Assembly: GCA_017435665.1 (NCBI GenBank)
Contig: JAFSEP010000024.1
Location: 1 to 59,449 of the forward strand
DNA length: 59,449 bases
Direction of reading: 5' to 3'
Origin: Clostridia bacterium
GTDB lineage: Bacteria; Bacillota; Clostridia; Oscillospirales; Acutalibacteraceae
The stretch's first letter is position 1. Each line of letters starts with the position of its first letter. The notes under the pieces were generated by a model that made no database searches, was not told where the DNA came from, and saw only the letters and a list, made by a program, of their open reading frames with translations. Made by a program: the position numbers and the translations under genes. Positions 57,839 to 59,448 of the stretch are shown here, piece after piece.

Positions 57839-58234
57839 TTAAGCCCAATGCAGTTCGTAGTAATACCATCGATCTGCAATTTGCTTTACGTAGCACCAAT
57901 CAGTTCCGTTATTCGGTTTGCCGAAATACGTACCGCCATCCGCCTCAGACTTATCGTTTCTGATTATATCAATATCGTTTCCTGAGTAAAAATCGGGAAG
58001 CAAAATTTCATTACCGGCAGTGTAATAATATCCGTAATATACCCCGCCGATACTGAGCCCGTTTGTTTCATATTCAAAAAACTCGGTTTCAGTATCCGTG
58101 GAAACAATATGGTTGTTCTGCAAAACGTAGTCAGAGATTTCGTTATACATTTCGTCCGACACAGACATTCCTTTACAAGCAGAAAAAGATAGCAAAACTG
58201 TGAAAATCATAAAAATAACAAATAAGCGTTTCAT
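57839..58234 (-). CDS. Putative lipoprotein, unknown
   Basis: 131 residues. An N-terminal hydrophobic stretch ends in LLSFSAC, a plausible lipobox with Cys20 as the anchor, so the mature part would sit outside the membrane. That part is acidic and rich in tyrosine (GGVYYGYYYTAGNE, DRWYYYELHWA), and no family was recognised. AAAGGAGA precedes ATG and a TTGCAC-N17-TATAAT promoter lies just upstream, bordering hairpin array 2. Confidence 0.7.
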   Translation of the reverse strand: MKRLFVIFMIFTVLLSFSACKGMSVSDEMYNEISDYVLQNNHIVSTDTETEFFEYETNGLSIGGVYYGYYYTAGNEILLPDFYSGNDIDIIRNDKSEADGGTYFGKPNNGTDWCYVKQIADRWYYYELHWA

Positions 58235-58255: not shown

Positions 58256-58284
58256 ATTATATCACAGAAAACAGCACAGTGCAA
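58256..58284 (-). promoter_or_regulatory. Promoter of the lipoprotein gene
   Basis: On the minus strand TTGCAC (58284-58279), 17-nt spacer, TATAAT (58261-58256) with an extended TGA before it. Confidence 0.8.
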
Positions 58285-58288
58285 TATT

Positions 58289-58460
58289 CAGTGAAGTTTG
58301 GCTTGCGCCAAGTGAAGCAGCGGCGTTGCCGCTGTGAAGTACCGTGCTCACGCACGAGTGAAGTTTAGTGTGCCACCCACGCCCGCAGGCACTTCACTAC
58401 GAAGCAACTTCACGATGCATTAGCATCACTTATCGTGCCGTAAGGCACACTTAGTTGCTC
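58289..58460. repeat. Hairpin array 2 (GTGAAGT / ACTTCAC linkers)
   Basis: GTGAAGT/C occurs at 58291, 58312, 58334 and 58358. The reverse complement ACTTCAC follows at 58391 and 58407, then the shortened ACTTA at 58428 and 58449. Hairpins between them include TTGGC/GCCAA, CAGCGGC/GCCGCTG, CGTGC/GCACG, GATGC/GCATC (58414-58427) and GTGCC/GGCAC (58435-58448). AGCAACT (58403-58409) and AGTTGCT (58453-58459) close an outer stem around the last two. The order, four direct linkers then two inverted then two short, is the same as in array 3. Confidence 0.75.
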
Positions 58461-58466
58461 CAGAAC

Positions 58467-58504
58467 AAAAAAAGCAAGTCTTCCGACTTGCTTTTTTGTT
58501 CTGC
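58467..58504. terminator. Bidirectional terminator downstream of the XRE gene
   Basis: GAACAAAAAAAGCAAGTC pairs with GACTTGCTTTTTTGTTC; A/T runs on both sides let it work in either direction. Confidence 0.85.
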
Positions 58505-58596
58505 GAAAGAGCGACAAAACGGTGTATAAGTGGGGGTAAGAACCACCAAAAGTATTGTAGCTGCACTGTTCGATAAATTGGAATTTGGCTAACCGT

Positions 58597-59022
58597 TTAG
58601 TCATCGACAAATTCTTCTACATACTCTTCATAGGTATCCGTATTTACTTCGTAACTCTCATATGCTGTAAAACCTAGAGCAACTAAGAGCAGTTGTCCTA
58701 CAATGATAATAGCAAGAATGATTCCAATGGTTTTCCATATTTTGCGGCTTCGGTTGTTTTTCACAACCAACTGCTCATTAATTCTGGATAGCTGCTCTGC
58801 AATGATATCTACATTTTCGTTTTGATTAATGGGTGAGCCTAACAATTGGCTAACATTGACCTCAAATACTTCAGCTATTTTTTGAAGCATTTCTGCGTCT
58901 GGTACAGAAAGGCCTTTCTCCCACTTTGAAATAGTTTGTCGAACTACATTCAATCTGATTGCCAATTCATCTTGCGTGAGTCCTTTTGTTTTACGCAAGG
59001 CTTTAATGTTTTCGTTAAGCAT
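58597..59022 (-). CDS. XRE-family transcriptional regulator with membrane tail
   Basis: About 141 residues. The frame opens at 59085, but GAGGAGGT seven nt before ATG 59022 sets the start. The N-terminal helix-turn-helix (LRKTKGLTQDELAIRLNVVR, then QTISKWEKGLSVPDAEML) belongs to the XRE family. A short linker leads to one transmembrane helix (IGIILAIIIVGQLLLVALGF) and an acidic outer tail, so it may sense something at the membrane. The target genes are unknown; the flanking lipoprotein and zinc-ribbon genes are candidates. The gene stands between two hairpin arrays. Confidence 0.88.
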   Translation of the reverse strand: MLNENIKALRKTKGLTQDELAIRLNVVRQTISKWEKGLSVPDAEMLQKIAEVFEVNVSQLLGSPINQNENVDIIAEQLSRINEQLVVKNNRSRKIWKTIGIILAIIIVGQLLLVALGFTAYESYEVNTDTYEEYVEEFVDD

Positions 59023-59135
59023 AGTTGTACCTCCTCGTTCTTGGCTACTTTTATTTTGCCACAGAAGCACAGTTGCTGCAAGCAACGCAAGTTAACATTG
59101 GCATAAATACTGTCAAATTCTTATTTGTCGAACTG

Positions 59136-59164
59136 ATTATATCATAAATCATCGGATATTTCAA
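59136..59164 (-). promoter_or_regulatory. Promoter of the XRE gene, overlapping array 3
   Basis: On the minus strand TTGAAA (59164-59159), 17-nt spacer, TATAAT (59141-59136). The -35 box touches the first linker of hairpin array 3. A second TTGACA (near 59111-59116) with TAACTT 16 nt later could be a weaker tandem promoter. Confidence 0.75.
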
Positions 59165-59325
59165 TGAAATCGCGCAAAGCACGATGAAATTCTCGTTTCG
59201 CTCGGATGAAATCTGCTCCGCAGATGAAATTAAATCCGTCCAATCTCCCGACGAAGTCGGATTTCATCACGAAGTGATTTCATCCACCGCAGGTGGATTT
59301 ATCCCGTCCGATAGGACGGATTTAG
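59159..59325. repeat. Hairpin array 3 (ATGAAAT / ATTTCAT linkers)
   Basis: ATGAAAT occurs at 59164, 59184, 59206 and 59224, the reverse complement ATTTCAT at 59261 and 59277, and the shortened ATTTA at 59297 and 59320. Hairpins include CTGC-TCC-GCAG, CCGAC-GAA-GTCGG, CAC-GAA-GTG, CCACC-GCA-GGTGG and CCGTCC-GATA-GGACGG. An outer stem AAATCCGTCC (59232-59241) / GGACGGATTT (59314-59323) competes with the last local hairpin. Confidence 0.75.
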
Positions 59326-59329
59326 TTGA

Positions 59330-59372: not shown

Positions 59373-59448
59373 TGGAGCGGATGACGGGGCTCGAACCCGC
59401 TACCTCCACCTTGGCAAGGTGGCGCTCTACCAGATGAGCTACATCCGC
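59373..59448 (-). tRNA. tRNA-Gly (GCC)
   Basis: Read on the minus strand it forms a complete 76-nt cloverleaf: acceptor GCGGATG/CATCCGC, anticodon stem CCACC/GGTGG with loop TTGCCAA (anticodon GCC, Gly), T loop TTCGAGC and an encoded CCA. Its promoter lies beyond the window edge. Confidence 0.96.

What the first reader, a model, noticed from the sequence alone, without database searches (positions are those of the whole stretch)
58289..59325. Two hairpin arrays with a linker that flips orientation, flanking an XRE gene
Arrays 2 and 3 have no shared sequence in their linkers (GTGAAGT versus ATGAAAT) yet the same plan: four direct linkers, two reverse-complement linkers, two shortened linkers, with a small perfect hairpin in each gap and an outer stem near the right end. 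Within an array the linker is almost invariant, so linkers seem to be homogenised or copied as a set. That fits a templated or recombinational process, or selection by a protein that binds the linker in both orientations. I know of no named family with this plan.
Basis: partly seen in the sequence, partly recalled or inferred. Interest (0 to 1): 0.82.

Follow-up and report, generated by a model that had tools for sequence, protein, structure and literature searches.

The report
Hairpin arrays behind tRNA genes
Two clusters of small DNA hairpins in a gut bacterium look like the front ends of tiny gene-carrying elements that sit right behind tRNA genes, often with a gene for a four-helix protein that changes in step with the hairpins, so a sequence catalogued as an 'RNA' may really be part of an undescribed kind of mobile element.

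Summary
The arrays are real: each has five perfect hairpins, a number that 0 of 1000 shuffles reach. They are not nameless: half of array 3 passes the threshold of Rfam Gut-1, RF01706, and the two linkers share xTGAAxT. Gut-1 is only half of the thing. The whole unit reads tRNA...CCA, terminator, half-array, inverted half-array, promoter, gene. In this genome 17 of 26 assessable tRNA operon ends have five or more hairpins within 330 nt. Homologues of arrays 2 and 3 in congeners are followed by a PF05635 (S23, four-helix-bundle) gene. Array-linked S23 genes lie in one clade and S23 divergence tracks array sequence (Mantel r 0.60, 0 of 9999). Sister copies sit behind different tRNAs; in one sister pair homology stops at the S23 stop codon, and one cargo gene is shared between different S23 types from exactly that point. 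Best reading: arrays 2 and 3 are S23-less, stacked members of a compact tRNA-tail element family whose array S23 recognises. Mobility and binding are inferred: no empty site, recombinase or RNA data. REP/BIME with RAYT is not supported.

The parts
59373..59448 (-). tRNA-Gly (GCC), anchor of the element
   Evidence: ARAGORN; Rfam RF00005
59328..59372 (-). terminator-like hairpin (20-bp arms) that begins right after the tRNA CCA; its sequence aligns with that of arrays behind other tRNAs in G013 and G015
59162..59327 (-). array 3 (ATGAAAT linkers)
   Evidence: Gut-1 matches on both strands
59228..59327 (-). tRNA-side half of array 3, closed by the outer stem 59310-59327 / 59228-59245; Gut-1 match 59256-59328, 55.3 bits, threshold 50
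59162..59235 (+). promoter-side, inverted half of array 3; Gut-1 match 35 bits, below threshold
59136..59164 (-). promoter of the XRE gene: TTGAAA (59159-59164, overlapping the array end), 17 nt, TATAAT (59136-59141)
   Evidence: read; statistics for the family
58597..59022 (-). XRE-family HTH protein with a C-terminal hydrophobic stretch (cargo gene of array 3)
   Evidence: Pfam HTH_3 PF01381 E 1.5e-15
58575..59147 (-). block 566 of 573 nt identical to a sheep-rectum Clostridia MAG (JAFXFC010000055.1) with different flanks
58461..58503 (-). terminator-like hairpin in front of array 2
   Evidence: I6, I9
58289..58459 (-). array 2 (GTGAAGT linkers), outer stem 58367-58374 / 58444-58451; weak Gut-1 match 58289-58369 +, 29.4 bits
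58256..58284 (-). promoter: TTGCAC (58279-58284), 17 nt, TATAAT (58256-58261)
   Evidence: read
57839..58234 (-). small lipoprotein-like ORF of 131 aa (cargo gene of array 2)
   Evidence: no Pfam match

Best explanation
Arrays 2 and 3 are the leader ends of compact elements that sit at the 3' end of tRNA genes. Shown: the unit starts directly after the tRNA CCA and runs terminator, half-array A (three or four linker-hairpin units closed by an outer stem), inverted half-array B whose outer end supplies or abuts the -35 box, promoter, gene. In many relatives that gene encodes an S23 (PF05635) four-helix-bundle protein, whose stop codon can overlap the start (ATGA) of a variable cargo gene. Shown: array and S23 diverge together, array stems keep pairing through compensatory change, loop orientation follows linker orientation, and sister units lie behind different tRNAs and in ten families of the order. 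Inferred: S23 binds the linker-hairpin units of its own array, probably as folded single-stranded DNA, and with an unidentified recombinase moves or maintains the unit at tRNA ends. Arrays 2 and 3 are S23-less copies that carry an XRE gene and a lipoprotein-like gene, stacked one behind the other after tRNA-Gly.
For: Own genome: 17 of 26 assessable tRNA operon ends have 5 or more hairpins in the next 330 nt; S23 follows in 5 of these 17. S23: 34 of 105 genes in 34 congeneric genomes have 5 or more hairpins in 330 nt upstream, against 4 of 105 downstream and 1 of 105 after shuffling; same-strand tRNA within 600 nt upstream in 20 of 34 against 5 of 71 others. After curation by eye 35 of 105 are array-linked; the label needs 4 changes on the S23 tree, shuffled mean 29.4, 0 of 500 as low, and all 35 lie in one branch of 41 rows. 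Mantel r 0.60, 0 of 9999. Arrays 2 and 3 align with S23-linked arrays of G001/G018 and G013/G015, terminator included for array 3. Own-genome sisters behind tRNA-Leu and tRNA-Tyr: homology from just after CCA to the S23 stop codon. Order: of the 29 closest S23 loci kept, 27 have 150 nt or more upstream, and of these 23 have 5 or more hairpins and 22 a tRNA; 40 of 44 elements with a tRNA have it 233-322 nt before the S23 match. Cargo exchange: L300 and L310 share cargo at 91.9% over 418 nt from the cargo start codon, with S23 only 46% identical, while their S23 sisters L088 and L314 have unrelated cargo. Stems: 9 of 17 pairs tested change on both sides, 0 of 500 shuffles. Loops: forward-linker TTCG 37, CGAA 0; reverse TTCG 1, CGAA 16. 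GNA/GNNA loops closed by C-G: 100 of 167 array hairpins against 15 of 178 in the rest of the window. tRNA 3'-end repeats flank two array islands in this genome (16 and 33 nt). Promoter at the array end: 22 of 35 against 10 of 70.
Against: No pair of close genomes with and without the unit at the same site was found; the one attempt (tRNA-Thr pattern) matched only this genome. A tRNA 3'-end copy within reach was found in 0 of 44 elements. No recombinase lies in the unit. G023 has 9 Gut-1 matches but no S23. Arrays 2 and 3 themselves have no S23. Only 1 of 7 similar cargo pairs among array-linked S23 crosses S23 types. Correlation of array and S23 can come from being inherited together rather than from binding. 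Related arrays also lie in 5' leaders and between convergent genes. S23 of this type was not found in viral contigs and plasmid relatives are below 60% identity, so no vehicle is known. The S23 tree is a quick one with 105 columns.
Confidence: 0.55

Rival explanations
1. Operator or insulator: the array is a DNA regulatory region between a strongly transcribed tRNA and a downstream promoter; S23 (or another protein) binds it to control that promoter, and there is no mobility beyond ordinary recombination.
For: The array lies between a terminator and a promoter, and its end supplies or abuts the -35 box; S23 divergence tracks array sequence.
Against: Presence and absence at the same tRNA-Gly (by eye 10 of 30 congeneric loci), near-identical units behind different tRNAs, exchange of cargo at the S23 stop codon, arrays in front of unrelated genes.
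Confidence: 0.22
2. Gut-1 is a structured noncoding RNA, as first described; the arrays are RNA genes or parts of transcripts.
For: Half of array 3 scores 55.3 bits, threshold 50; compensatory changes; related half-arrays lie in what look like 5' leaders; Weinberg et al. 2010 rate Gut-1 as certainly an RNA and not cis-regulatory (PMC2864571, passages seen).
Against: The two halves carry the unit on opposite strands, so one transcript holds one half in sense and one in antisense; the full arrays lie upstream of the promoter, not in its transcript; most loops fit GNA/GNNA on one strand, a class recalled as stable in DNA.
Confidence: 0.12
3. REP/BIME-like repeats spread by a RAYT (Y1) transposase.
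For: Extragenic, palindromic, direct and inverted units side by side, many copies per genome.
Against: No Y1_Tnp match in this genome (98.94% complete) although it has the most Gut-1 matches in the genus sample; 21 of 34 genomes have Y1_Tnp. The linked gene is S23.
Confidence: 0.04
4. A host structure at tRNA ends, such as a gyrase or supercoiling site or a road-block for read-through, inherited mainly by descent.
For: 17 of 26 tRNA operon ends in this genome carry an array.
Against: Different linker types and downstream genes, or no array, at the same tRNA in congeners; link to one S23 clade.
Confidence: 0.07

Closest known systems
Gut-1 RNA (Rfam RF01706)
   Same: Half of array 3 passes its threshold; 39 matches in this genome at E up to 1, of which 11 over the threshold.
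   Different: The model is 77 nt long and covers one half. Here two halves face each other on opposite strands in a unit with terminator, promoter and gene.
S23/IVP (PF05635) intervening-sequence elements of 23S rRNA, e.g. of Coxiella
   Same: The same four-helix protein family in a very small element tied to a stable-RNA gene; described as a selfish element (PMC4990558, abstract and passages).
   Different: Behind tRNA genes rather than inside 23S rRNA; a hairpin array instead of a terminal stem; own promoter; cargo genes. S23 genes with heptamer-like repeats, as in Coxiella, form other branches in the same genomes.
REP/BIME and RAYT
   Same: Palindromic units in both orientations, linked to a protein family.
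   Different: No Y1 transposase in this genome; the linked protein is S23.
Integron gene cassettes with attC hairpins (recalled)
   Same: Single exchangeable genes joined to folded DNA sites.
   Different: No integrase in the unit; the anchor is a tRNA CCA; the array has 7-8 hairpins. attC features were not tested.
tRNA-integrating satellites and islands (recalled)
   Same: tRNA 3'-end location; direct repeats of the tRNA end in two islands of this genome.
   Different: Units of about 0.6-1.3 kb with no integrase; repeats absent within reach in 44 other elements.

Membership tests
Gut-1 RNA (RF01706) | score at or above the gathering threshold | tested here: met
   59256-59328 -, 55.3 against 50 bits; the other half of array 3 (35) and array 2 (29.4) are below it
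Gut-1 RNA (RF01706) | expressed noncoding RNA from one strand | not testable with these tools
   no RNA-seq; matches on both strands facing each other speak against a single-strand RNA
REP/BIME with RAYT | Y1 transposase in the genome | tested here: not met
   0 PF01797 matches in this genome at E up to 0.001
REP/BIME with RAYT | palindromic units in direct and inverted order | tested here: met
S23 intervening-sequence element | S23 (PF05635) ORF in the element | tested here: not met
   not met for arrays 2 and 3 (XRE and an ORF without Pfam match); met for homologous arrays in G001, G013, G015, G018
S23 intervening-sequence element | inserted in 23S rRNA and removed by RNase III | tested here: not met
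   behind tRNA-Gly; RNase III processing not testable
Integron gene cassette | attC site recognised by IntI | not tested
   resemblance only, from memory
MITE or transposon | target-site duplication and empty sites | tested here: inconclusive
   tRNA 3'-end repeats at two array islands, none within reach at 44 other elements; empty-site attempt failed

The most novel reading that the evidence does not exclude
A new class of mobile gene-cassette system: an S23 four-helix-bundle protein recognises a two-faced array of minihairpins that fold on opposite DNA strands, and carries exchangeable single genes to the CCA end of nearly any tRNA gene. Gut-1 'RNA' and perhaps the rRNA intervening sequences would be faces of the same S23 system, whose function has been open for decades.
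Probability: 0.35. Interest if true: 0.92.

Novelty: new variant of a known kind. Interest (0 to 1): 0.78.

Why it matters
S23 proteins have no known function (so stated in PMC4990558, passage seen), and Gut-1 was listed as a noncoding RNA of human gut only (PMC2864571, passages). If the link holds, it gives S23 a likely partner (the array of its own unit), turns a catalogued RNA into part of a DNA element, and points to a common but overlooked route by which gut Clostridia gain single genes behind tRNAs. The paired series of S23 proteins and linker types makes binding directly testable by swapping partners.

Tried and rejected
RAYT/REP: rejected for this genome. XRE protein as the array's partner: not supported, since other arrays precede unrelated genes and the XRE block occurs without an array in L090. 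Phage or plasmid vehicle: close S23 relatives not found in one scan of viral contigs; 25 plasmid records matched, all under 60% identity. Empty site: the tRNA-Thr pattern matched only this genome and the array 3 boundary pattern only this genome and G015. Literature: ten searches gave no paper that describes this unit; of these only listings were seen, plus passages of PMC2864571 and PMC4990558; subscription journals are mostly not held. Structure prediction and fold search were not used; the S23 query matches one PDB sequence, 2rld.

Labels by eye: of the 34 S23 loci with 5 or more hairpins I dropped 4 (L079, L268, L269, L280) as heptamer-type or chance, ignored L273, which only a second measure had flagged, and added 5 (L307, L313, L318, L325, L326), all before the tree was built. 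L309, labelled 'none', has an array remnant upstream.

Full report
1. Observation. Arrays 2 and 3 are present as described, in 58289-58459 and 59162-59327. Each has five perfect hairpins of 5 bp or more; the best of 1000 dinucleotide shuffles has four. The linkers are GTGAAGT and ATGAAAT; they share 5 of 7 letters. Both arrays end in ...TTAGTTG on the + strand. The plan is four direct, two reverse and two shortened linkers in both.

2. Name. Rfam at its own threshold finds Gut-1 in half of array 3 (59256-59328 -, 55.3 bits against 50). With a loose threshold the other half matches on the opposite strand (35 bits) and array 2 matches at 29.4 bits. In this genome 39 places match at E up to 1, of which 11 are over the threshold, with 150 of 290 candidates scored; 31 remain at E up to 0.01. 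At these loose limits the control genomes also ring (4 of 14 at E 1, 2 of 14 at E 0.01, none over the threshold), so weak matches alone mean little. Many matches come as facing + and - pairs 10-45 nt apart. So Gut-1 is one half of a two-faced unit. In the genus sample 30 of 34 genomes have a match at E up to 0.01 and 19 of 34 one over the threshold. Weinberg et al. 2010 list Gut-1 as a noncoding RNA, human gut only, not cis-regulatory (PMC2864571, passages).

3. Place. ARAGORN and Rfam give a tRNA-Gly at 59373-59448. Reading away from it: terminator hairpin, array 3, promoter TTGAAA-17-TATAAT, XRE gene, terminator, array 2, promoter TTGCAC-17-TATAAT, small lipoprotein-like ORF. This genome has 41 tRNA matches in 30 operon ends by my grouping; 26 have 150 nt or more behind them, and 17 of these 26 have five or more hairpins in the next 330 nt, terminator included. 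In 5 of the 17 the next gene is S23. At one and the same tRNA (Gly) in congeners, by eye, 10 of 30 loci shown show an array or its remains, with differing linkers and following genes; one has another kind of repeat with S23, and 19 have none (30 of the 50 places found were held as loci).

4. Partner gene. PF05635 (23S_rRNA_IVP, S23) was searched in the 34 genomes: 31 have it. Of 106 matches 105 could be read with flanks. Five or more hairpins lie in the 330 nt upstream in 34 of 105, against 4 of 105 downstream and 1 of 105 in single-base shuffles. A same-strand tRNA lies within 600 nt upstream in 20 of these 34 and in 5 of the other 71. After curation by eye (four dropped, five added) 35 are array-linked. 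On an S23 tree all 35 fall in a branch of 41 rows (SH-aLRT 96) and the label needs 4 changes against a shuffled mean of 29.4 (0 of 500 as low); the tree is a quick one with few columns. Within the branch, neighbouring S23 share linker type; a Mantel test of S23 distance on array 5-mer distance gives r 0.60, 0 of 9999 permutations as high. This can reflect co-inheritance of a linked pair as well as binding.

5. Arrays 2 and 3 belong there. Array 3 aligns along its length, terminator included, with the arrays in front of S23 in G013 (L088) and G015 (L300); array 2 aligns with those of G001 (L333) and G018 (L281). The similarity fades at the -35 region of the promoter. In the window S23 is missing and other genes follow.

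6. Borders and exchange. Two sister units in this genome, behind tRNA-Leu (C8) and tRNA-Tyr (C33), align from just after CCA to the S23 stop codon and not beyond. Across the order, 127 of 295 genomes have a match to this S23 type; the 29 closest outside this genome that were kept, 69-89% identical, come from ten families. Of the 27 with 150 nt or more upstream, 23 have five or more hairpins and 22 a tRNA; this sample was chosen by similarity to an array-linked S23. In 44 of the 49 units I passed to a tRNA was found upstream, and in 40 of these 44 it ends 233-322 nt before the S23 match; the tRNAs are of many kinds. The S23 stop codon overlaps or abuts a following ORF in 8 of 35 array-linked genes and 6 of 29 order loci, against 2 of 70 other S23 genes. 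L300 and L310 share this following gene at 91.9% DNA identity over 418 nt from its start codon while their S23 are 46% identical; their closest S23 relatives, L088 and L314, have unrelated followers. It is the only one of 7 similar cargo pairs among array-linked S23 that crosses S23 types.

7. tRNA-end repeats. Exact 16-nt copies of the tRNA 3' end lie downstream in 9 distinct cases among 236 tRNA calls in redundant loci. Two, both in this genome, enclose an array and genes: tRNA-Tyr, 1316 bp, repeat 16 nt; tRNA-Thr, 1111 bp, repeat 33 nt plus 5. Several others enclose a short element without an array, and in some an array follows the copy. No copy was found within reach at 44 units, so direct repeats are not a general feature.

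8. Structure. On an alignment of 11 homologous arrays (A1), 17 pairs in three well-aligned helices are formed in 95.2% of cells; 9 pairs change on both sides (22 cells), never reached in 500 shuffles; one helix hardly varies, and the helices were picked from this alignment. Loop orientation follows linker orientation: 37 TTCG and 0 CGAA beside forward linkers, 1 and 16 beside reverse ones (54 informative of 359 hairpins in 46 arrays). Loops read GNA or GNNA on one strand with a C-G closing pair in 100 of 167 hairpins of genus arrays, 42 of 96 of order arrays, 8 of 10 in arrays 2 and 3, 15 of 178 in the rest of the window and 0 of 17 in shuffles; among the 25 longest hairpins elsewhere in the window 10 also have such loops, closing pair not checked. 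That d(cGNAg) and d(cGNNAg) loops are unusually stable in DNA is recalled, not taken from a call. The strand switch between halves argues against one RNA.

9. Promoter. A TTG-16/18-TATAAT-like promoter lies in the 150 nt before 22 of 35 array-linked S23 against 10 of 70 others (shuffled means 2.55 and 2.9) and before 13 of 27 order loci (0.7).

10. XRE gene. 566 of 573 nt (58575-59147) are identical in a sheep-rectum Clostridia MAG contig, L090, whose flanks differ and show no such array. The gene is therefore recently shared and separable from the array.

11. Against the reading. No empty site was obtained. G023 has 9 Gut-1 matches and no S23. Related half-arrays lie in what look like 5' leaders (L002, L009, L015, L016) and between convergent genes (L012, L014). 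No recombinase or vehicle is known.

12. Verdict. Like Gut-1 by sequence, like S23 intervening sequences by partner, like gene cassettes by exchange; a member of none by the tests made, apart from the Gut-1 score. I rate the tRNA-tail element model at 0.55.

Noticed in passing
L025 (C33 of this genome), L088, L222, L230, L237, L241, L250, L252, L254, L259: A second kind of short element behind tRNAs with the core ACAGTCCGGTGGACTGT or similar palindromes; in L230, L241, L252, L254, L259 it is enclosed by an exact copy of the tRNA 3' end.
   Followed up: partly
L060-L087 and other S23 loci without arrays: Most other S23 genes are flanked by inverted tandem repeats of about 7-9 nt (for example GTAGTCA units upstream, TGACTAC downstream), recalling the heptamers reported upstream of Coxiella S23p. 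They sit between conserved genes.
   Followed up: no
L002, L009, L015, L016, L041, L048, L052: Gut-1-type half-arrays placed between a hairpin and the ribosome-binding site of a gene on the other strand, so possibly transcribed 5' leaders.
   Followed up: no
window 58575-59147; L090, L212, L242, L373, L375: A shared promoter and leader motif, about TATAATnAnyTCrAyAAATaagaATTTG, in front of or behind cargo genes.
   Followed up: no
L090 1-1100: A direct repeat AAAAAATGTGACGCAGTATTCATAT on both sides of the XRE gene in the sheep-rectum MAG.
   Followed up: no
window 58455-58470 (array 2): The terminator arm of array 2 continues into TGGAGC, complementary to the tRNA-Gly end GCTCCA, as it does in full in L244; this suggests that array 2 once sat directly at a tRNA.
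   Followed up: partly
L275, L281, L283, L300, L302, L310, L314, L334: The 3' end of S23 encodes AAGGAG a few bases before the overlapping ATGA, a built-in ribosome-binding site for the next gene.
   Followed up: partly
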